Shown here piece by piece: positions 1 to 12,793 of a stretch of 23,039 nt of DNA. Every line of letters begins with the position of its first letter. Position 1 is the stretch's first letter. Where the stretch lies: positions 1-23,039 of the IMG/VR virus record IMGVR_UViG_3300044546_000430; one strand, written 5' to 3'. The stretch is from a virus. Below the pieces are notes generated by a model. That model did not search any database. It was not told where the DNA came from and was given only the letters and a program-made list of their open reading frames with translations. Position numbers and translations under genes: made by a program.

Positions 1-171
1 CGTCGGCACAATCAAGCTAGGTCAATCGAGCATGGCGAACGCTGGATGTCTATGTACTTAAAAGAATACATTTATTTTAAGTTTGCCCTGTGGGAGCCGA
101 ATGAGTTTGTTGAATTGTGGGAAGAACTTGACCAGCAATACGAAGAGATGAATAGGAAAATGTCATGGTGA
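1..171 (+). CDS. 3' end of an unidentified early protein (partial)
   Basis: An open frame runs from the first base to a TGA at 169-171, giving 56 residues ending in EEMNRKMSW. The start lies outside the window. The visible part is rich in aromatic and acidic residues (for example FALWEPNEFVELWEEL) and looks helical, but I recognise no family. It overlaps the next gene by 7 nt (ATG at 165), the same coupled layout as the rest of this operon, which is the main reason to believe it is a gene. Function unknown. Confidence 0.6.
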   Translation, partial: RRHNQARSIEHGERWMSMYLKEYIYFKFALWEPNEFVELWEELDQQYEEMNRKMSW

Positions 172-683
172 CACAGCATAGGCTAAAAGATCTTTTAATA
201 TATGACGAAAATAGCGGGATTTTTTATTGGAAAAATCCAACAGCAAGCTGGATAAAACCGGGAGATATTGCTGGCGGGCTGGAGTCTGATGGAGCTATAA
301 GAATAAAGATCGACGGTAAGCTCTATCTTGCACATAGACTTGCATGGTTTTTTTTCTACGGTAAATGGCCGGATGGATGTTTAGACCACATCAACAGAAA
401 AAGAGCAGACAATAGAATTAAAAATCTAAGGCTCGCCACCCGTTCCGAAAACGGGCAAAATTCAAATGTGAGAAAAGACAACAGAAGCGGAACAACTGGT
501 GTATTTTTCAGACCAGACACAGGAAAATGGCGGGCAGTAATATGTGTTAACCAAAAGAAAGTGAACCTTGGAAGCTTTGATTCAAAATTATCTGCGATTG
601 CTGCTCGAAAAATTGCAGAAAAAAAATACTTCCCATTTAAGGTTTATAGCGAGGGAAGAATAGAAGAGGAAATGATGAGATGA
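165..683 (+). CDS. HNH endonuclease with C-terminal AP2 DNA-binding domain
   Basis: This 172-residue protein has the layout of phage homing-type HNH-AP2 endonucleases. The HNH core spans about residues 55-100: AHRLAW (H57), then CLDHINRKRADNR with D74-H75, N83 and N87, then the RLATRSENGQN tail. An AP2-like three-strand domain follows at about 107-155 (NRSGTTGVFF, GKWRAVI, LGSFDS). Such enzymes nick or cleave DNA near their own locus and spread as free-standing selfish genes. The gene is visibly AT-richer than its neighbours (17 G/C of 60 in 181-240), which suggests recent acquisition. It overlaps the upstream gene by 7 nt and the downstream gene by 4 nt (ATGA). It could instead have been kept by the phage for packaging or host-DNA attack; the family is sure, the role is not. 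Confidence 0.9.
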   Translation: MVTQHRLKDLLIYDENSGIFYWKNPTASWIKPGDIAGGLESDGAIRIKIDGKLYLAHRLAWFFFYGKWPDGCLDHINRKRADNRIKNLRLATRSENGQNSNVRKDNRSGTTGVFFRPDTGKWRAVICVNQKKVNLGSFDSKLSAIAARKIAEKKYFPFKVYSEGRIEEEMMR

Positions 684-1877: not shown

Positions 1878-2322
1878 CTGGGCTGAAAAAAATACAGTTC
1901 AATGTGAAGTTGTAAAAATCGCGATGGCTCAAGACAGGAATGGTCATATCCTCAAGCTTGCTATCCACCCAAACGATCTTCCCAAGGATCTTGTTCTTGA
2001 CCCTTTAGGCTCTAGGTATGTTATGGTGTTGGCGCGTTTAAACGATCAGGATGAGGTGGTCCAACCAAAGGAAAAAACAGATGGCGATAAGGCAGTGGAT
2101 ATTGCTGGTCTTTTGTGCCGCAATGATCGTTTCGTTTCTTGGCTTTTTGATAATGGTTACAGTGGTAGCCGCGATCAATCTGGCGCTATTGCCGCCATCA
2201 GAGATGTCTGTGGTGTCCAGTCCCGCTCTGAATTCAGAACAAACGAAGATGCTCGCGGAAGATTTTTTGAACTGAAGGCCGAGTTTGAAGCGGCTTTGAA
2301 AAAGGGTGAGGTGAAGAAGTGA
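1870..2322 (+). CDS. Conserved phage protein of unknown function upstream of the integrase
   Basis: This 150-residue protein uses a GTG start at 1870, overlapping the previous stop by 8 nt; no in-frame ATG fits the N-terminus better. The N-terminal half (MNNWAEKNTVQCEVVKIAMAQD onward) looks beta-rich. The C-terminal half, with AGLLCRNDRFVSWL, GAIAAIRDVCGVQSRSEF and ARGRFFELKAEFEAAL, resembles a family I recall from many proteobacterial phages and prophages near replication or recombination genes (pattern GxLC-x-D-x-x-F-x-x-W ... IRxxCGVxSRxE). No enzymatic motif is visible. Its 4-nt overlap (GTGA) with the integrase suggests co-expression. Confidence 0.65.
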   Translation: MNNWAEKNTVQCEVVKIAMAQDRNGHILKLAIHPNDLPKDLVLDPLGSRYVMVLARLNDQDEVVQPKEKTDGDKAVDIAGLLCRNDRFVSWLFDNGYSGSRDQSGAIAAIRDVCGVQSRSEFRTNEDARGRFFELKAEFEAALKKGEVKK

Positions 2323-3152
2323 CTTTTGAAGAACTGTTTAAGGACTATAGCAACACAGATGCCTACAAGAAGCTGAGCGTTGCTTCTTGGCGGGGATATG
2401 CCTATGGGGCTAAGAATCTTTCGCACTTCTTTAAGGACCGGGACGCAACAAAGCTTCGCCGCTCTGACTTCATCAAGATGAAGGATGAGATGTCTAATAG
2501 GCCGGGATCTGCGAACCTTGTGCTGCGTGTGGCTTCCATCCTCTATGGACATGCTCTTGACCGGGATCTTATCGCAGCCAATCCTGTGGCCAACATGAAG
2601 AAGAACAAGCTTCAGGGCCATGAAAAATGGAACCCCGAGGAAGTAAGGAAGCTTATCAGTGAAGCTGACGAGCGTATCTCAATTGCTGTTGCACTGGCTT
2701 GGTACACCGGGCAGCGGGAAGGAGACATCCTCGCAATGCGTATGGGTGACTACACAGACGGTTATATTGCCCTCACGCAGAGCAAGACAAAGACAGAGAT
2801 GAAGATTAAGGTACACCCGGATCTTGAGGCCATTCTGTCTGCCATTGCACCGAAGCGAAACCCCGAAGATTACATTGTCTCCGGCACTAAAAGGATGGGT
2901 GACTCCAACTTCCGAAAGCTGTTCGCAAGCGAGTCAAAGCGCCTTGGCGTTGAGAAGGTGTTTCACGGAATAAGAAAGGGGGTCGCATCTTCCTTGGCGG
3001 AAAATGGACGCCCCATCAGTGAGATTGCCGCTATGCTTGGCCATAAATCCATTCGGATGGCGGCTTATTATGCGGAACAGGCTGACAGCACTAAACTTGC
3101 AGAGAGTGCCGTCAGTAACCTGACATCCGTTACCGTCCAAGCTTCTTATTGA
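2319..3152 (+). CDS. int: Tyrosine-family site-specific integrase
   Basis: This 277-residue recombinase has an N-terminal SAM-like core-binding helical domain (about 1-95) and a catalytic domain. Visible catalytic residues are Arg133 in TGQREGDIL, Lys156 in QSKTKTEM, His216 and Arg219 in FHGIRKG, His242 in MLGHKS, and the nucleophile Tyr250 or Tyr251 in MAAYYAEQ. The set is complete and the length is normal for a compact phage integrase, so it should be active and the phage temperate. It starts at GTG 2319 in a GTGA overlap with the preceding gene. Its last 23 bp overlap the 3' end of the convergent giant gene, and a strong hairpin follows 12 nt after its stop. No excisionase or attP was identified. 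Confidence 0.95.
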   Translation: MTFEELFKDYSNTDAYKKLSVASWRGYAYGAKNLSHFFKDRDATKLRRSDFIKMKDEMSNRPGSANLVLRVASILYGHALDRDLIAANPVANMKKNKLQGHEKWNPEEVRKLISEADERISIAVALAWYTGQREGDILAMRMGDYTDGYIALTQSKTKTEMKIKVHPDLEAILSAIAPKRNPEDYIVSGTKRMGDSNFRKLFASESKRLGVEKVFHGIRKGVASSLAENGRPISEIAAMLGHKSIRMAAYYAEQADSTKLAESAVSNLTSVTVQASY

Positions 3153-6100
3153 TTTCGCTAATCTGGGAGGTGAGCCTTGCTCTCACCTCCCGGAGCTTAT
3201 TCATGGCTTCAAACTTTTCATCGCGCGTCATTGTTTCATCGCGCTCGATCTGACGCTCACGGGCGCTGATCTTGTTTAAACCATCAAACAGCTTATAGAT
3301 GTACTTCTTATAGGACAAAACATCCTTGTTCTCCGCAAGGTAGTCCATCACCGCCTCTGTGTCGCCAGTCTGGCGAAGGCGACTAAAAGACCTATTCACC
3401 TCATCGACAACCCGGAAGAGTTCATAGGCCTGAGCCACGGACTTGGGGCTTCTTGATTCGGCATCAAGCAGGAACCTCTTGATCATGGGGAGTTGAGTGA
3501 TGTCCCTTGGAAGCCTCTCAGGCCCAGCACCTCCAGCCTCAATAAGCATGCCGACACCCTGCATAAGGTAACTGCCCATCGGGCCACCATATCCACTCAC
3601 AAGCTGGTCAATCACAATCGGGCTGACACCTTCAAACTTGCCAGTTGTGAAGTTGTACTTGATCGGGATGTCGCCAAGCATCCTCGCCACAGTGGATGTG
3701 CGGGAGTCATACTGGAGTTCTGGGGTAAGGCGCATCTTGCCTTCAGAGATGAGCGGAAGGTCGGTGTAGAAGTCGTGATTGACTATGACCTCAAGCGCCG
3801 GAAGAGCAATTTGCGGGATTGGGTTTAAACCAAACGTAGAGGCAAACTCCTCAAAGAAGAACTTCGCACCTTCACGAACAGAGGTCTCCCCCTTGAATGC
3901 CTTGTAGATTTCCCTCGGGATCGTGCTGAAAAGCAGGCCAGCTTCAAACGGGTTGGGAATGGCCGCGAAATACCCGCCTTCAATACCGAACCACTTGAGC
4001 GGGATAAGAAGATTGCTGTTCTTCACATAGTCCGGAATGTCTTTGTAATCTTCGTCATCTTCAAGCATCATCTCAAGAGCAACGGATAGCGCTGCAAGCA
4101 TTGTGCCGCGCACCAAGAATTTCTTACCAAGATTGGCGTCACGCTCCCCAAGGCGATATCCGCTGGCAGTCATGATGCCAGCCTTGCCAGCCTGATACAG
4201 CACATCCATACCCTGAATACGGGCATTCAAGAACGGGATAAGCTGGGTGAGGATCTTGAGCAATCCGCTCGATCCTCTCCTGCTGAAGTTCATAATCTCA
4301 ATGGCGCGGAATGCAGCCTCTGCCTCGCTCATGCCGCTCTTGATCGCGGCCTCATACACCGCGATACGGGTCGCGGCGTCAGATGCTTCAGACCAAACGC
4401 CAAGCCTGTCCCACCCGGCCATAATGAGGCCTTGGGCACCCTGAGTGCTTGCGATGTTCAGCACGTTCCCGGGCAATGCCCTGCGCCGGATGATCGCCGC
4501 CATCTCTGCGGGGGAACGCATGGCAAGATCGTGTGACCCAACCACACCACGCCCCATCAGGGCTTGGAAGCTTGCCGAGCCTTTAAGGGCACTTGCGAAT
4601 CCTTTCGCGGTGCCGATAAAGGGAGTGATGTCCTCACCGCTTGTGATCCAAGAAGAAAGAGTATCACGGAGAAGGTTGGCAACCATGAATGCGGGGTCGC
4701 GTGTGATCGTTTCGCGGATTGCACTTGTCGGCATCCCGAGAATCTCCATCGCGCGTCCCATGTCGGTGCGGTCATCGGCACCAAGCGATGTCACGAGAAG
4801 CGGGTCCTTGACGGCAAACCTCTTGAGAACGCCATCCTTGCGGTAGAACATCACCTGTTCGGATTCGCCACGAGAAAGATCGGGCTTTTCTGAAGCCCCG
4901 AGAAGACGGGCTTCACCCATGTTCTTCGCAAGCTCAAACGCCTTCGTGACCGCGATGTTGTGCGTGATTGCACCCATCCAGAAGTTTACATTGCTCAGGA
5001 TAACAAGCATCGGATCTTCGATAAGCTCACCGCGCTGCGAGCCCTTATACTCACGAATCTTAATGTCGCCAGCAAGCCTTGACGGAGCGCCGGGTGTAAG
5101 CTGTTCTTCATAAAGCTCACGATAGAAGCCGTAGTAGTCCATCTGCTGTGTGAACCTTCCAAGCTCCGCATCTGTGATGCGGCCAGCATCGCGAGCGGCA
5201 GTAAGGAGCTTCTTGTTGAAGCGCTGATAAGACTTGTAGGCCTCCACAATTTCAGGGTAGTTCTGCTGTGTGAACTGGATTGTGGTGTTGATGTAGGTGT
5301 CATCAAGCTCACGCGGCACAGGCTTACCAGCAGCCTTCAGTCCAATGGCGCGCATTGCTGTTGCGTAAGTTTTGAAGATCGTTCGCTTATCGCGGGGCTC
5401 GTTTGTGGCGGGGTCAACAGGCCCCGGCTGGAGCATGACGCGGAAGATATCGATTAGCTTGTCGGCATCATCACGCACAGCAACTGTGGCAGACTGGATG
5501 TCTCCGGGGCGTGTAAACTCAATCGTTGGAGCCCCGAGCATGACTGAAGACGCCGTAAGCTGCGACTTTCTGTCGGCCATAGCCAATGCCACAACAGCAG
5601 ACTGTGTGGCTTCACGGCGCTGGTAATTGCCCGTGTCTCTTTCGTTCGCAATTTTTTCCATAAGGTCAAACGCCGCATGCCTGTCAACAAGCGAAACCCT
5701 GCGGGCAAGGTTTGCGCGTGTGCCGAAGTAACCACCCTTCACGGTGATGTTGCCATACATCGGGCTGTTGAGAATTCTCTCTTCTGTTGACGGCCCCGTG
5801 AAGAAATCAAAGATGCTCTGGGCAATCGACTGCTTCTTTTCCGGCACAAAGAGAGTACGATTCTTGGCTTCGATGTAGGGGGGGAGAGGTGCCGCAGAAT
5901 ATCGAATGTCCTGAGAATCAGAAGAGAATCTTGAGTCCGGTGTTTTTACCTGTTCGGGATAAAACGCGATGTAGCTATCTGAACCTTTGTCCTCGTAAAG
6001 GTTCTTGTAAACGATGCCATCAAATCCTTCTTCTTTTGCCTTTTCAATTTCAGCGTCCCACTCTCCGTTTGCGCCGCCAACATCGGGCACTCTTTTAAGT

Positions 6101-9100
6101 TTCTGGATGCTCAAATAAACAGGAACGGTTACGCCAAGATCATCAACTTCAACATCTGAGTTCTCATCTCTATTGAGAACGTCTCTCCTCCCTGCGGCAA
6201 TGGCGTTTGATTCGCTTACATAGCCAGCCTCGCCAGCCTCCTCAGAGGTGAATCCGCTGCCATCATCCCAATGCCATAGACCGCTGTCATCCTGATATGC
6301 GATAACGGCAAGGAGGCTTTCTTCTGTGCGCTTGCCAAAAGCCCTCTCCTTTGCAGCTTCAAGCGTGCCAAAGTGCATCGGGGTTTTGGGGACAAAGTTT
6401 CCATCAGAAGTGAATGTGCCATGATGGTAGACAACCATTGGCTTTTTGTTGCGATCAACAACGCCGCTGTTCTTGAACCAGCGTTTAAAGTCCTCAGAAT
6501 TCAGTGCGGGTGCCGCAGAGAAGCGCTGGCTTGTCGCTGCGCCTTCTTCAAACTGGTTGAAGATAGACTTTACTTGAGTAGGGGAAAACGCCACCCAAAT
6601 TGGGTCGCCACCGGGCTCTTCAATTAAAGCACCGTCATACCCCTGCCTCTGAAGCTCTTCAGTGCTTTTGCCATCTAAGCCGCGATTTGTCGAGAGATAT
6701 GGGTTTTGAATGGAAAGCATGACCGGAAGGACTTGCGGAGCAAACTCCTTCAAGCCCATCATCTGCTTGATGTTGTCAAAACCAGAAGAGGGGCGGAAGT
6801 CGCCATCGTCACTGATCTTTATATTTCTCCGCGAATACGAGCTTGCCTGATCGGGATTTGTAGCAAAAAAGAATCCAGCTTGAGAACTCCTCCCTTTCCC
6901 AAGCTTACTCCTATCAAACTCCTCAAATGTCTTGTCTGTGCCGTGATAAACGACCAATGGGCTCCCGTCAGGGTTCACTGCCTTGCTGTTGCGGAACCAC
7001 CGCTTGAACTCTTCAGAGTTAAGCGCAGGGGCTGCGGAGAAGCGAGTTGAAGCCTCACGACCCACACCTTCACGCGCACCAATTTCACCAGCGTCGATGC
7101 CCTTGAAGATCTCCTGATACTTGTTGTCCTTGAGGATGCGAAAGATGCTGCGGAAGAATTCGGTGATGCGGTTGAGAAGGCCCCGTGAGTTCTGACCATC
7201 GGCACTCTTGCCAAGCTCAGCGGAGTTCTTGTTCTTTACCCAGTCCTTGTACATCTCGGCCACGGCTTCTTCGATCACCGCGTCAGGGTCTGTGTAGAGT
7301 TCAGAGATGGGTCGGCCACCGGGCGTGTAAATGGTCTGGGCCTTGTCGAGGTATGTGTAGGATCTTCCCGGCACCTTTGTTTTGACGGCGGCACGAGAAA
7401 GGATCTTCCACTCTGCGGGGCGGATCACACCTTGATCACGGAGAACGTGGATGATTTCGTGGTTGAGCGTTTCAGCAAGTTCGGCCACGGCCTGCTCCAC
7501 CGTCATGTCCGGACGGAGAATACCTGTAGAGAGGTCCACAACGCTCTTGATCCCATTCGGGGTTTTCTCAACGCGGGCCTGCCCACGGATAAGCAGATTT
7601 CTGTCCGTGCCGATAAGCTCCTCAAGCTTTACTTCAACATCCTTCGGCACCTTGCCCGAAAGCCTGCTCTTGAGTGCGGTGTAGATACCCGCATAGCGAT
7701 CAATTGTTGCCTGATTGTAATCCCGCAAGATAGGCCCTTCTGCCTCTGCCTGAGCAAAGGTGCGGCGGGGTGCAGGTGCTTCCTTAAGAGGGCCAGCAAG
7801 GGATCGGGGCTCCTCCGGAACGCCTTCCACAGGTGGCGCAGAAGGCTCAGGAGCCTCTGTAATGGTCGGGGCTTCCGGCTGAGCCAAAGATACTGGCTCA
7901 GGAGCCTCCACAATTGCAGGGGCTTCTGTGATAGGTCCTTCACCCGAAACGGCTTCAGCGGCCCCTATGGGAGCCTCCGGGGCCATTGCCTCGGGCATAA
8001 CGACTTCAGGTGTAATAGCTTCTGGTGCTGCTTCCGGTGCTATGGCTTCCGGCACTGTTCCTTCCGGCACCACAGCCTCGGGAGTGGCTGGCTGTCCTGC
8101 GCGCGAAAGGAAAAATGCGCGAGATTTGGGGATAGCCTCTCCGAGTTCATCACGAGCAGGGAATGGCTTCGCGGCAGCAACAAAATCATTAAGCTTCGTG
8201 ATCTTCTTGGTCATGTCGGCAACCTCGTCTTCGGTTGCCTTCTTGATCATAGCCTCAGAAACATTCTGGCGAGTAGCTTCGCGCTTAATGACATCAGGCC
8301 GGGACATATAGGATGCCAAGCCTTCAGCCTCGGCTACAAGGCTGTCGCGATCCGCAATCACTTCATCGGTGGTCTGGTATTCCTTGCCATTGATCTTCGC
8401 GGGGAACACGCTCGGAAGCTCGGATGGTTTGCGAACTGTAACCTTAGCGTCAGTACGCTTCTTATAAATATCAATGGCTTCTTCGGCCTCAACCGGGTCG
8501 AGGAAGTCTCCAACGGTGTTGCCAGCGGGGGTGCGGATTGTGAAGCGAGAAATGCCATCGAAGTCATCCTCAACAACTTCAACATCACCCTCAACATTGA
8601 ACTGACGAAGCTCTTCTGCGGCGCGGGAGATCTCACCCTGACGCTGAGCCTGAGCGTTTACAGCACTCTCCTTGGCGAGGTCTTCCTGAAGCTGGCGATA
8701 AGGGCGGAGCTTACGGCCAGCGGCAAGCTGGATCACACCTTCGACAAACGAACCAGCAAACGCGCCAGTGCCTGCATTGCTCAGGATGTCCTGACCAATC
8801 TCAACATCGGGATTATAGATCCCGTATTCCATGATGTCATTGGCGATACCGGACGCCACTTCTTGTGCGCCTTCAGCGGCACCAGCGCGTGTAATACGGC
8901 CAAGACGGCTCTGCACAATCTTATTGAGTGCCGGGGCCTGTGATACGGGAACCTTGCTGAGAAGCTGCTGGAGAGGCCCGAAGAACCTTCCAATGGGCAG
9001 CGCTTCAGATGCGCCAATAAGGCCGCTAAGCCTCTGCGCCGCAAGCTGCTGTTCTTCGCTGATATCCATGCCAGATGCAAGCTGGTTGCGGATTGTTTCA

Positions 9101-9621
9101 GCGCGACCTTCTGCGCCAAGCGCAACACCCTGTGCGCCAGCCGTGACTGTGGCCGCTCTACCAGCAGCCGCAGCGGTCTTCCCTGCAAGGCTTGCGCCCT
9201 TCGCAACGGCAGAACCCGGCACAAGGAATGACGCAACGCTGCCAAGAGCCTGTGCAGCCTGTTGTGCGGCAGTTGGATCTTTTGTTGGATCAATGCCGAA
9301 TGTTTCCTGAAGATACTTGCGGGCTTCTTCAGAAAACTGTCCGGGGGCAGTCTTAGCCGCCTCTTCAGCGGGATAAAAAAGAGAGGCAATACCGCCCGGA
9401 ATGTCAGTGAACCCGGTCCCAGCACCATAGGCAAAGCGCCCGAGAATGCTAGATTCATCGGGGCCTGTTGGAGCGGGTGGCGGCGCAGGTTCAGACGCAA
9501 CGCCAGCCGAAGGCGAAGTCGGAAAAGCACTCTTGAAGAAAGAGTCAACCTCCTGATCTGTTGCGCCATCCTTGAAAGAGAACGACCGCCCCAGTTCTGG
9601 AACGTAAACGATTCGCGCCAT
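3130..9621 (-). CDS. Giant phage polyvalent protein: zincin-type peptidase motif, two ADP-ribosyltransferase-like domains, helical C-terminus
   Basis: This 2163-residue protein is the last product of the virion operon. The N-terminus has the MARIVYVPELG ... FKDGATDQEVDSFF motif seen on many phage internal proteins, followed by Gly/Ala-rich, partly membrane-like helices (about 60-330). Residues 508-614 are a Pro/Glu/Ala-rich linker. A zinc-peptidase motif NHEIIH (H721, E722, H725) is followed by a candidate third ligand in EEAVAEM (784-790). Two ART-PolyVal-like domains follow: about 860-1032 (FKRWFRNS, VVYHGT at 890-895, closing WVAFSPTQVKS) and about 1033-1239 (FKRWFKNS, VVYHHGT at 1063-1069, closing YIAFYPEQVKT). 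The remainder to 2163 is mostly helical and contains DPAFMVANLLRDTLSSWITSG (around 1646), resembling large polyvalent-protein-associated domain LPD38. Such proteins are thought to be ejected with phage DNA and act in the host. I see no lysozyme or transglycosylase domain. The start ATG follows TAAGG at ideal spacing. Confidence 0.85.
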   Translation of the reverse strand: MARIVYVPELGRSFSFKDGATDQEVDSFFKSAFPTSPSAGVASEPAPPPAPTGPDESSILGRFAYGAGTGFTDIPGGIASLFYPAEEAAKTAPGQFSEEARKYLQETFGIDPTKDPTAAQQAAQALGSVASFLVPGSAVAKGASLAGKTAAAAGRAATVTAGAQGVALGAEGRAETIRNQLASGMDISEEQQLAAQRLSGLIGASEALPIGRFFGPLQQLLSKVPVSQAPALNKIVQSRLGRITRAGAAEGAQEVASGIANDIMEYGIYNPDVEIGQDILSNAGTGAFAGSFVEGVIQLAAGRKLRPYRQLQEDLAKESAVNAQAQRQGEISRAAEELRQFNVEGDVEVVEDDFDGISRFTIRTPAGNTVGDFLDPVEAEEAIDIYKKRTDAKVTVRKPSELPSVFPAKINGKEYQTTDEVIADRDSLVAEAEGLASYMSRPDVIKREATRQNVSEAMIKKATEDEVADMTKKITKLNDFVAAAKPFPARDELGEAIPKSRAFFLSRAGQPATPEAVVPEGTVPEAIAPEAAPEAITPEVVMPEAMAPEAPIGAAEAVSGEGPITEAPAIVEAPEPVSLAQPEAPTITEAPEPSAPPVEGVPEEPRSLAGPLKEAPAPRRTFAQAEAEGPILRDYNQATIDRYAGIYTALKSRLSGKVPKDVEVKLEELIGTDRNLLIRGQARVEKTPNGIKSVVDLSTGILRPDMTVEQAVAELAETLNHEIIHVLRDQGVIRPAEWKILSRAAVKTKVPGRSYTYLDKAQTIYTPGGRPISELYTDPDAVIEEAVAEMYKDWVKNKNSAELGKSADGQNSRGLLNRITEFFRSIFRILKDNKYQEIFKGIDAGEIGAREGVGREASTRFSAAPALNSEEFKRWFRNSKAVNPDGSPLVVYHGTDKTFEEFDRSKLGKGRSSQAGFFFATNPDQASSYSRRNIKISDDGDFRPSSGFDNIKQMMGLKEFAPQVLPVMLSIQNPYLSTNRGLDGKSTEELQRQGYDGALIEEPGGDPIWVAFSPTQVKSIFNQFEEGAATSQRFSAAPALNSEDFKRWFKNSGVVDRNKKPMVVYHHGTFTSDGNFVPKTPMHFGTLEAAKERAFGKRTEESLLAVIAYQDDSGLWHWDDGSGFTSEEAGEAGYVSESNAIAAGRRDVLNRDENSDVEVDDLGVTVPVYLSIQKLKRVPDVGGANGEWDAEIEKAKEEGFDGIVYKNLYEDKGSDSYIAFYPEQVKTPDSRFSSDSQDIRYSAAPLPPYIEAKNRTLFVPEKKQSIAQSIFDFFTGPSTEERILNSPMYGNITVKGGYFGTRANLARRVSLVDRHAAFDLMEKIANERDTGNYQRREATQSAVVALAMADRKSQLTASSVMLGAPTIEFTRPGDIQSATVAVRDDADKLIDIFRVMLQPGPVDPATNEPRDKRTIFKTYATAMRAIGLKAAGKPVPRELDDTYINTTIQFTQQNYPEIVEAYKSYQRFNKKLLTAARDAGRITDAELGRFTQQMDYYGFYRELYEEQLTPGAPSRLAGDIKIREYKGSQRGELIEDPMLVILSNVNFWMGAITHNIAVTKAFELAKNMGEARLLGASEKPDLSRGESEQVMFYRKDGVLKRFAVKDPLLVTSLGADDRTDMGRAMEILGMPTSAIRETITRDPAFMVANLLRDTLSSWITSGEDITPFIGTAKGFASALKGSASFQALMGRGVVGSHDLAMRSPAEMAAIIRRRALPGNVLNIASTQGAQGLIMAGWDRLGVWSEASDAATRIAVYEAAIKSGMSEAEAAFRAIEIMNFSRRGSSGLLKILTQLIPFLNARIQGMDVLYQAGKAGIMTASGYRLGERDANLGKKFLVRGTMLAALSVALEMMLEDDEDYKDIPDYVKNSNLLIPLKWFGIEGGYFAAIPNPFEAGLLFSTIPREIYKAFKGETSVREGAKFFFEEFASTFGLNPIPQIALPALEVIVNHDFYTDLPLISEGKMRLTPELQYDSRTSTVARMLGDIPIKYNFTTGKFEGVSPIVIDQLVSGYGGPMGSYLMQGVGMLIEAGGAGPERLPRDITQLPMIKRFLLDAESRSPKSVAQAYELFRVVDEVNRSFSRLRQTGDTEAVMDYLAENKDVLSYKKYIYKLFDGLNKISARERQIERDETMTRDEKFEAMNKLREVRARLTSQISEINKKLGR
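3165..3191. terminator. Perfect 10-bp inverted repeat after the integrase stop; terminator-like hairpin
   Basis: GGGAGGTGAG (3165-3174) and CTCACCTCCC (3182-3191) are perfect inverse complements around a 7-nt loop. RNA pairing could extend outward by a U-G wobble, a C-G and a U-A. It lies 12 nt past the integrase stop and inside the last codons of the convergent giant gene. There is no clear T-run on either side, so it is not a textbook Rho-independent terminator. It may be a bidirectional pausing or termination structure, an RNA-stability element, or a recombination-related site. Confidence 0.5.
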
Positions 9622-11033: not shown

Positions 11034-11098
11034 TTACCGCTCGGGATTATTTGTTCTGAAAACAGATGCGGGGCTTAAAAATTTCCCGCTCGGGATTA
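11034..11098 (-). repeat. 13-nt direct repeat flanking a short intergenic gap
   Basis: The + strand word CCGCTCGGGATTA occurs at 11037-11049 and 11086-11098, 49 nt apart, on both sides of the 64-nt gap between the 565-aa and 466-aa genes. TTACCGCTC also recurs at 11034-11042 and 11096-11104. One copy overlaps the stop codon of the upstream gene and the other lies next to the start of the downstream gene. It could be a local duplication or a leftover of recombination. Confidence 0.55.
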
Positions 11099-12793
11099 CC
11101 GCTCATACATGTCGTAGTACTGGGGTTCAAAGTCTGCAAGACCGCCGCCACGGTAACGGCGCTGCAAGCCATTCGGGACAAGGCCACCGCCAGCACCACC
11201 AAAGCCAAGAGCACTTCCAATTCCTTTCACCGCGCCACCAATTGCGCCAAGCCCACCGAGACCAGATACAATACCAGCGCCAGCAGAAAGCCCGCCAAGG
11301 ATGTTTTGCATCGTGGATGTTTTCTGGGTTGACTGAGGGATTTGATTCGTGCCGCCAGAAAGAGGGGTCAGTACATTTCCCTGAAGAGCGGCGATGCCAA
11401 GAGGATATTGCGCCTTGGCGAGATCCCTCTCTTCTTGCTGCTGGCCCGCAGCCTGCTGTGCTGCAAGATTTGAAAGCTGCATCTGTTTGCGCTGCTCAGC
11501 GAGAAGAGCCTGCTGTTGAGCGGTTCCCGTCTGGCCAGCAAGGCCAGCGAATTCTGCTTCCTTTGCAGCCGCAGTCTGTGCTGCATCCTGCTGACGGGCA
11601 CCCATAAGACCTTCAAGGCCAGAGAACTCAGTCTGCTTGCCAAACTGACGAGAGGCTTCACCAGCCTGCCTTGCGGCAAGAGTGCCTTCCGCTCCAGCGA
11701 GACCAAGGTTTGCAGCGAACTGGCGAGAGGCTTCTTCAGCCTGCCGTGCATCCATAGTGCCGTTGAGAACATTAAGCTGCAACTGCTTCTGGTATTCAAG
11801 AACCCGCTGTTCAGCGTCCCTTGTCCCCATAAGCCCCGCGAGACTGGCCATGCCAGCCTGCTGGCCAAACTGCCGAGAAGCTTCAGCGGCCTGCTGGGAT
11901 GCCATCAAACCTTCGAGACTAGAGAAGTCAGCCTGCTGTCCAAACTGGCGAGAAGCCTCTCCAGCCTGCTGTGCAGCAAGGCGATCAGCCATCTCTTTGC
12001 TGTACAGGCCAGCACCAGATTCAAACGCGCCCTGAAGGCTCTGTGCGTCCAAGTCTGCAAGACGATCAAGATAATCTCTGCGTGCAATTTCTTCCTGAAT
12101 AGCCTGACCAGATCCACCAAAGCCACCAGAGCGGATTGCCTGAAGCTCTCTCTCGCCGCGAGCCTCATCATAGGATTTCTTTAAACGAGCCTTTTGCCTG
12201 CTGGCGACAAGCTCCTCATAAGGCGACATGCGCTCCTGAATATTTCGAGCGGTGTAGTCGGCCATCTGATATTCTTGCGGGGTATATCCGCGCTCGGCCT
12301 CATATCCAGCCTGAACCCCGGAATAGTCGCTCGGCGCGTATTGCCCCGCAGCCCTATAGCCTTCTGCAATATCACCATACTGTGTCGGGGTAAGCTGACC
12401 AATGCCAGAATACATTGACTCAACGTCATCATAGGACGTTGGAGCATATGCAGACCCAGTGCCATAAAGACCTTCAATGTCCCCGAAGTTTGTCGGGCCA
12501 TATGCGCCAGCACTCTGGTACAAAGCCCCAATATCAGCAAACGGGGTTTTGTCATACTGACCTGCTTCACCATAAGCACCGTAGAGCCCCTGAGTTCTCT
12601 GGAGGGCCTGAAGCTGCTCGGGGTCGCCATACATGTAGAGGCTGGGGATTCCGGCATAGTAGGACTTTGTGAAGTCTGACTCTTCAGGATAGCCATAGGT
12701 CTGTGCCGCTGCTGCGCCAGCTTTTGCCCGCGCAAGCATATCCTGAACGTATGCCTCAAGATCCTTGCCGTAGCCTGTCTTTTTCTCTGCCAT
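11096..12793 (-). CDS. Repeat-rich internal virion protein (565 aa), candidate DNA-ejection protein
   Basis: This 565-residue protein has an unusual modular layout. After a charged N-terminus, residues 77-184 are six 18-residue repeats with the pattern AGxYxPTxYxDIxxLYx. Residues 185-270 are charged helix. Residues 273-447 are seven 25-residue repeats of the type AARQAGEASRQFG..-EFSGLEGLM, predicted helical. Residues 496-540 are a Gly/Ala-rich, GxxxG-like hydrophobic segment (LGGLSAGAGIVSGLGGLGAIGG). The C-terminus carries YRGGGL. Position and composition fit the inner-core proteins of podoviruses that build a conduit across the envelope (compare T7 gp14-gp16), but I recognise no named family. 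It is separated by 2 nt from the upstream gene stop. Confidence 0.65.
   Translation of the reverse strand: MAEKKTGYGKDLEAYVQDMLARAKAGAAAAQTYGYPEESDFTKSYYAGIPSLYMYGDPEQLQALQRTQGLYGAYGEAGQYDKTPFADIGALYQSAGAYGPTNFGDIEGLYGTGSAYAPTSYDDVESMYSGIGQLTPTQYGDIAEGYRAAGQYAPSDYSGVQAGYEAERGYTPQEYQMADYTARNIQERMSPYEELVASRQKARLKKSYDEARGERELQAIRSGGFGGSGQAIQEEIARRDYLDRLADLDAQSLQGAFESGAGLYSKEMADRLAAQQAGEASRQFGQQADFSSLEGLMASQQAAEASRQFGQQAGMASLAGLMGTRDAEQRVLEYQKQLQLNVLNGTMDARQAEEASRQFAANLGLAGAEGTLAARQAGEASRQFGKQTEFSGLEGLMGARQQDAAQTAAAKEAEFAGLAGQTGTAQQQALLAEQRKQMQLSNLAAQQAAGQQQEERDLAKAQYPLGIAALQGNVLTPLSGGTNQIPQSTQKTSTMQNILGGLSAGAGIVSGLGGLGAIGGAVKGIGSALGFGGAGGGLVPNGLQRRYRGGGLADFEPQYYDMYER
11453..11977 (-). repeat. 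Seven 25-residue (75-nt) coding repeats
   Basis: Units begin at residues 273, 298, 323, 348, 373, 398 and 423 of the 565-aa protein, an exact 25-residue period. The best-conserved units read A[AS][QR]QA[GA]EASRQFG, then FSSLEGLM or FSGLEGLM. Units 3, 6 and 7 are diverged but keep register. Confidence 0.85.
12242..12565 (-). repeat. Six 18-residue (54-nt) coding repeats
   Basis: Units begin at residues 77, 95, 113, 131, 149 and 167, an exact 18-residue period. Examples are AGAYGPTNFGDIEGLYG and AGQYAPSDYSGVQAGYE. Conserved positions are a Tyr at 4, Pro at 6, an aromatic at 9, Asp and Ile/Val at 11-12, and an aromatic near 17. Confidence 0.85.

What the first reader, a model, noticed from the sequence alone, without database searches (positions are those of the whole stretch)
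3130..9621. Ejected polyvalent giant combining a zincin-type peptidase motif with two tandem ADP-ribosyltransferase-like domains
One 2163-residue frame contains HEIIH (721-725) with a downstream EEAVAEM, then two adjacent ART-PolyVal-like modules (about 860-1032 and 1033-1239), then a roughly 920-residue helical region. Polyvalent proteins of phages and conjugative elements are known to carry such effector domains and are thought to enter the host with the DNA. The tandem duplication of the ART directly after the peptidase suggests a multi-effector package modifying host proteins (for example RNA polymerase or defence factors) at the moment of infection. The exact combination in a temperate podophage is worth a close look.
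Basis: partly seen in the sequence, partly recalled or inferred. Interest (0 to 1): 0.8.

Follow-up and report, generated by a model that had tools for sequence, protein, structure and literature searches.

The report
Cut-apart phage effector polyprotein with zincin
A giant protein that a temperate phage probably injects into bacteria carries a metallopeptidase-like domain and two ADP-ribosyltransferase-like domains separated by a short repeated peptide; across related phages this peptide marks where effector pieces are swapped and, most likely, where the protein is cut into separate tools.

Summary
The gene is real, but on the minus strand (3130-9621, 2163 aa). HEIIH (721) and EEAVAEM (784) are present and conserved. 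ART1 is a solid ART-PolyVal domain. ART2 is a divergent, different subtype, not a simple duplicate. The C-terminal ~920 residues are an LPD38 chassis.

Found beyond that: the tag R[FY]SAAP stands at exactly the three borders zincin|ART1|ART2|C-terminus. In a syntenic relative (L328) the chassis is 49-60% identical, but both ARTs are replaced by an unrelated 585-residue cassette between the same tags. In about 300 related giants such border tags are private to each protein, are shared by unrelated domains of one protein (z=10), and track the resident zincin's active-site class (unseen set p=1.3e-6) but not the ART they abut.

Best explanation: an injected polyprotein chassis with an exchangeable effector slot, whose tags are cut by the zincin, releasing free ARTs. 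Proteolysis, injection and ADP-ribosylation are inferred; an LPD38 relative has been found in virions by mass spectrometry.

The parts
3130..9621 (-). Giant polyvalent protein gene, 2163 aa
   Evidence: ORF; LPD38 and ART-PolyVal Pfam hits; syntenic relative L328/L329
7072..7704 (-). Zincin-like metallopeptidase domain, residues about 640-850
   Evidence: HEIIH plus EEA[VI]A[ED] 62-67 residues downstream, conserved in most of the closest relatives; modelled core pLDDT about 70-90 for residues 710-830; no Pfam hit of its own
7447..7461 (-). HEIIH, residues 721-725, predicted zinc-binding/catalytic motif
   Evidence: identical in L328 and L171
7252..7272 (-). EEAVAEM, residues 784-790, predicted third zinc ligand
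7027..7044 (-). Border tag 1, RFSAAP, residues 860-865 (zincin|ART1)
   Evidence: RFSASP at the same place in L328
6553..7020 (-). ART1, residues 868-1023; H893, Y929, D996
   Evidence: Pfam E=2.4e-21 alone; Foldseek matches tankyrase/PARP catalytic domains; residue positions
6508..6525 (-). Border tag 2, RFSAAP, residues 1033-1038 (ART1|ART2)
   Evidence: 4 of 6 codons differ synonymously from tag 1
5905..6501 (-). ART2, residues 1041-1239, divergent HFGT subtype; H1066, D1201 kept, strand-2 Tyr not identified
   Evidence: Pfam 25.7 bits, below cut-off; profile hit; subtype in 6 of 366 ART domains
5887..5904 (-). Border tag 3, RYSAAP, residues 1240-1245 (ART2|C-terminal chassis)
   Evidence: RFSAAP at the same place in L328
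3133..5886 (-). C-terminal helical chassis, residues 1246-2163
   Evidence: 68 ORFs of the loci share it; model pLDDT 72, pTM 0.72
3499..4056 (-). LPD38 domain, residues 1856-2041
   Evidence: PF18857 E=4.9e-33
2319..3152 (+). Integrase gene, convergent, overlapping the giant's 3' end
   Evidence: phrog_1 E=6.9e-39; same arrangement in L328 at 53% identity

Best explanation
The protein is a modular, injected effector polyprotein. Its N-terminal region and LPD38 C-terminus are a constant chassis. Between them is a slot, bounded by short peptide tags, that holds exchangeable effector cassettes, here ART1 and ART2. The tags R[FY]SAAP are most likely cleavage sites of the protein's own zincin. Cutting would give about 92 kDa (N-terminus plus zincin), 19 kDa (ART1), 23 kDa (ART2) and 102 kDa (LPD38) pieces, so that the ARTs act freely on host proteins. 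Shown here: the architecture, the tags at every border, cassette replacement between the same tags in a syntenic relative, tag sharing between unrelated domains of one protein, and covariation of tag with zincin class. Inferred: that the tag is cut, that the zincin cuts it, when it is cut, that the protein is injected, and that the ARTs modify host proteins.
For: (1) R[FY]SAAP occurs three times in P0001, exactly at the three borders; 0.0005 expected from composition. In 2.77 million residues of translated loci R[FY]SA[AS]P is otherwise seen only at the two slot borders of L328/L329 and once in a short unrelated frame. (2) L328 aligns to P0001 at 1-865 (49%) and 1229-2163 (60%), with both ARTs replaced by an unrelated segment between RFSASP and RFSAAP, in the same gene order. 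(3) In 35 non-redundant giants with both an ART and an unrelated LPD-type domain, the two domain ends share the same tag: BLOSUM 8.2 own against 0.9 swapped, z=10, 0 of 20,000 permutations. The shared signal is confined to 4 residues and codon identity is near chance, 41 of 78 against 33 expected. (4) Tag recurrence elsewhere in the protein: unseen set 20 of 116 at p<=0.05, and 16 of 116 with all ARTs masked. (5) Zincin class against tag: HExGH with Q-tags 14/3 against 6/21 in discovery, 12/3 against 7/49 in the unseen set, p=1.3e-6; at unrelated LPD ends Q 7/13 for small-residue zincins against 0/33 for bulky ones. (6) Partial Mantel: tag follows zincin given ART (p=5e-4), and not ART given zincin (p=0.55). 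(7) Where the ART giant lacks a zincin, a neighbouring giant may carry one plus the same private tag (L301, L110). (8) LPD38 protein JC1 gp69 is in virions.
Against: No cleavage was observed and the scissile bond is unknown. The tag also correlates with the C-terminal chassis after controlling for zincin, so lineage or another phage protease could explain part of the covariation. Of 18 complete ART giants without HExxH or HExxxH, several have no zincin in the fetched stretch. N4 virion RNA polymerase carries an HExxH domain yet is reported to be packaged unprocessed (PMC5512222). The zincin has no Pfam hit, and no zincin is among the 50 Foldseek matches listed. Only a minority of proteins (18 of 61 discovery, 20 of 116 unseen) show a significant extra copy of their tag.
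Confidence: 0.62

Rival explanations
1. The tags are cleavage sites, but of a different, lineage-specific phage protease (for example a prohead protease) or a host protease; the zincin is an effector that cuts host proteins.
For: The tag also tracks the C-terminal chassis given zincin; some tagged giants have no zincin in the fetched stretch; host-directed zincins are considered possible by Iyer 2017.
Against: Covariation of tag class with the zincin's active-site residue replicated in unseen proteins and at an unrelated domain end; the tag follows zincin given ART and chassis (p=5e-4).
Confidence: 0.2
2. The tags are not cut; they are recombination seams or domain-insertion linkers that allow effector cassettes to be swapped.
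For: Cassette replacement in L328 coincides with the tags; homology breakpoints across giants are enriched for matching peptides on both sides, 74 of 707 slots at p<=0.05 against 35 expected.
Against: DNA-level seams predict shared codons, but tag copies differ synonymously (4 of 6 codons in P0001; 41 of 78 same against 33 expected), and the signal stops after 4 residues. Seams do not predict covariation with the zincin active site.
Confidence: 0.13
3. The protein is a single uncleaved ejection or structural protein; the tags are packaging or binding linkers and the ARTs act in the full-length chain.
For: N4 virion RNA polymerase, ArdC and TraC1 are transferred uncleaved although they contain zincin domains (PMC5512222).
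Against: Privacy of the tags and their tie to the zincin class have no obvious role in packaging.
Confidence: 0.05

Closest known systems
Polyvalent proteins of phages and conjugative elements (Iyer et al. 2017, PMC5512222)
   Same: Giant multidomain phage protein next to virion genes, with a zincin-like motif, ART-PolyVal and LPD38; autoprocessing by the zincin was already proposed there
   Different: That paper describes no linker or border motif and no cassette slot bounded by a tag; a text search found no use of 'linker', and 'cleavage site' only in a reference
Pseudomonas phage F116 ORF60
   Same: Temperate phage; zincin motif (HEMIH) about 150 residues before an ART-PolyVal, with FSR tags on both sides of the ART
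   Different: One ART, LPD23, no LPD38 hit at the threshold used; tag FSR rather than FSAAP
JC1 gp69 / Bcep22 gp75 'DarB-like' proteins (PMC9144972)
   Same: Giant late-gene protein ending in LPD38; JC1 gp69 present in virions by mass spectrometry
   Different: Much longer (4515 aa), carries transglycosylase, methylase/helicase and LPD3 regions; no ART reported
T4 Alt
   Same: ADP-ribosyltransferase injected with phage DNA, as a model of action (PMC5512222)
   Different: R-S-E type ART, single enzyme; no embedded zincin is described
MARTX toxins (analogy from own knowledge, not tested here)
   Same: Large delivered protein with an embedded protease that releases exchangeable effector domains at inter-domain sites
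   Different: Cysteine protease, bacterial toxin acting on eukaryotic cells, unrelated

Membership tests
Phage polyvalent protein | Several unrelated catalytic or LPD domains in one large polypeptide | tested here: met
   ART-PolyVal and LPD38 above Pfam cut-offs; zincin motif
Phage polyvalent protein | Encoded beside late/virion genes | tested here: met
   Same strand as virion structural, adaptor and collar genes
Phage polyvalent protein | Packaged and injected | not testable with these tools
   Only by homology: JC1 gp69 in virions
ART-PolyVal (H-Y-D ART), ART1 | Family score and H, Y, D residues in strands 1, 2, 5 | tested here: met
   77 bits; H893, Y929, D996; the model's best fold matches are PARP catalytic domains, E=4.6e-4. 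The Y was placed by eye from the alignment
ART-PolyVal (H-Y-D ART), ART2 | Family score and H, Y, D residues | tested here: not met
   25.7 bits, below 31.2; H and D present, Tyr not found at the expected place, HFGT subtype. ART-like, not a confirmed member
Zincin-like MPTase of polyvalent proteins | HEXXH helix followed by a helix with a conserved Glu | tested here: met
   HEIIH, then EEAVAEM 63 residues on, conserved in most close relatives; both lie in predicted helices
Zincin-like MPTase of polyvalent proteins | Zincin fold (three-stranded sheet, N-terminal helix) and peptidase activity | tested here: inconclusive
   Core modelled at pLDDT about 70-90, but no zincin among the listed Foldseek matches; activity not testable
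LPD38 | PF18857 match above cut-off | tested here: met
   115 bits against 27
Self-processing polyprotein | Cleavage at inter-domain sites by the resident protease | not testable with these tools
   Sequence evidence only

The most novel reading that the evidence does not exclude
Phage polyvalent proteins are a general class of self-cutting effector polyproteins. Each has a private 4-6 residue recognition site that co-evolves with its embedded, or neighbouring, zincin and stands between exchangeable effector cassettes. This gives a code by which cassettes can be delimited in any such giant and the zincin's specificity read from sequence.
Probability: 0.55. Interest if true: 0.85.

Novelty: new variant of a known kind. 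Interest (0 to 1): 0.72.

Why it matters
It was proposed in 2017 that zincins process polyvalent proteins, but I found no reported cleavage site. The border tags turn that proposal into a direct, residue-level test and give a simple way to find effector cassettes, including unknown ones such as the 585-residue cassette of L328, in many phage giants. They also suggest a large untapped set of sequence-specific zinc proteases whose sites can be read from their own genes.

Tried and rejected
'Tandem duplication' of the ART: rejected, because only the first 34 residues are alike and ART2 is another subtype. Exact combination as unique: rejected. A recent DNA duplication of the tags: rejected by synonymous differences. 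Tags as ordinary ART C-termini: rejected, because an unrelated domain end shares them and tag does not follow ART similarity. A single-protein scan of viral contigs with P0001 found nothing, and a first genome scan failed. No sequence relative in the PDB; the C-terminal model has no fold match. Literature searches for a published tag or cleavage motif found none, though most subscription papers are not held. The P1 virion paper gave no cleavage site for a polyvalent protein.

Full report
OBSERVATION. The frame is real but lies on the minus strand: ATG to stop, 3130-9621, 2163 residues. HEIIH is at 721-725 and EEAVAEM at 784-790. Pfam gives ART-PolyVal (E=1.3e-24, two stretches) and LPD38 at 1856-2041 (E=4.9e-33). 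Scanned alone, ART1 scores 77 bits and ART2 25.7, the latter below Pfam's cut-off of 31.2; the zincin segment has no Pfam hit. The window is a 23-kb virus record: integrase at 2319-3152 (+), and on the minus strand virion structural, adaptor and tail collar genes. The SU10-type adaptor and the absence of a recognised tape-measure gene fit a short-tailed temperate phage, but the record may be a fragment.

THE DOMAINS. ART1 keeps H893, Y929 and D996, the pattern named for polyvalent ARTs by Iyer et al. (PMC5512222), and the model of 640-1245 matches PARP/tankyrase catalytic domains (E=4.6e-4), although that model is poor overall (pLDDT 55.7). ART2 is 71% identical to ART1 over only 34 residues and then differs. 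It belongs to a rare HFGT subtype (6 of 366 ART domains), keeps H1066 and D1201, and has no Tyr at the expected place; its activity is uncertain. The zincin call rests on HEIIH plus EEA[VI]A[ED] 62-67 residues on, conserved in most close relatives, and on a reasonably modelled core. The C-terminal 920 residues are a helical module shared by 68 ORFs of the first loci, with no PDB fold match.

HOW COMMON IS IT. Pseudomonas phage F116 ORF60 already has zincin motif then ART. Forty-nine such pairs, including duplicate contigs, are in the fetched loci. Iyer et al. describe zincins as the commonest polyvalent domain, ARTs in up to 12 copies, LPD38 as phage-only, and zincin autoprocessing as a proposal.

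THE BORDER TAGS. R[FY]SAAP occurs at 860, 1033 and 1240, precisely between zincin, ART1, ART2 and the C-terminus; expected number by composition 0.0005. Copies 1 and 2 differ at four of six codons, all synonymous, and over the 34-residue block 16 of 24 conserved residues use different codons, so they are old and kept at protein level.

THE NATURAL EXPERIMENT. Contigs L328/L329 encode a relative with the same neighbours: integrase 53%, the large virion protein 70%. P0001 1-865 and 1229-2163 align (49% and 60%), HEIIH and EEAVAEM are kept, but both ARTs are missing. In their place is an unrelated segment without Pfam or PHROG hit, bounded by RFSASP and RFSAAP. The effector slot is thus exchanged between the tags.

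GENERALITY. In a discovery set of ART giants the residues after the ART form a tag private to each protein (FSIRED, YSLR, RFAV, LFQEAPP, STAR, LFMP and so on). Own tags recur elsewhere in the protein more than foreign tags: 18 of 61 at p<=0.05. An unseen, de-redundified set, with tags read by a profile, gave 20 of 116 (binomial 1.3e-6), and 16 of 116 with all ARTs and their N-borders masked. An unrelated LPD-type domain in the same proteins ends in the same private tag: z=10 in 35 proteins, and z=8.6 on only the four residues after the S/Q column. The shared signal spans offsets 0 to +3 and nothing beyond, with near-chance codon identity. This excludes domain ancestry and makes DNA copying unlikely.

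LINK TO THE ZINCIN. Zincins with a small residue before the second His (HExGH) go with tags containing Gln: 14/3 against 6/21 in discovery, p=1.4e-4; 12/3 against 7/49 unseen, p=1.3e-6. At LPD ends, small-residue zincins have Q in 7 of 13, bulky ones in 0 of 33 (Fisher p=3e-5). P0001 (HEIIH, S-tag) obeys the rule. Partial Mantel on 118 proteins: tag follows zincin given ART (r=0.16, p=5e-4) and not ART given zincin (p=0.55). On 93 proteins tag follows zincin given ART and chassis (p=5e-4), but chassis also counts given zincin (p=5e-4), so part of the signal is lineage. Some ART giants without a zincin sit beside a giant that has one and shares the private tag: L301 KS[AE]DR, L110 RF[AR]RD.

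CAVEATS. The hypothesis was formed on the discovery set. Five discovery tags were set by hand. The LPD test was motivated by 20 examples seen first, and its set overlaps the earlier ones. HExxH by regular expression includes some doubtful motifs such as HEGRH. The unbiased breakpoint test is positive but diluted by ART homology. No cleavage was observed and the cut bond is unknown.

MECHANISM. Most likely the phage packages the giant (JC1 gp69, an LPD38 protein, is in virions), and the zincin cuts at the tags before, during or after ejection, freeing ART1 and ART2 to modify host proteins. N4 virion RNA polymerase, with an HExxH domain but no processing before packaging, is the main counter-example.

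Noticed in passing
L328:8252-9958: The cassette that replaces the two ARTs in the relative is a segment of about 570-585 residues with no Pfam or PHROG match: a candidate unknown injected effector.
   Followed up: partly
window 3130-3152: The integrase gene and the giant gene converge and overlap by 23 bases; the same tight convergent arrangement is kept in L328.
   Followed up: partly
L110 (Cupriavidus pampae), ORFs at 4447 and 12726: Two neighbouring large frames carry six and five copies of R[FY][ARS]R-type tags; only one has a zincin-like motif (HELIGH). A possible trans-processing pair.
   Followed up: partly
window 165-683 and 1371-1877: Two HNH/endonuclease VII-like genes upstream of the integrase, in a more AT-rich stretch (41-43% G+C) than the rest.
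   Followed up: no
window 11096-12793: A 565-residue minus-strand protein with internal repeats (EASRQFGQQ-like and YG-rich units) and no family match, conserved in L328: probably an internal virion protein.
   Followed up: no
L009:7918-15081 (Dolichospermum phage Dfl-JY45): One protein with four ART copies of different subtypes and FAR/FSR/FYR tags.
   Followed up: partly
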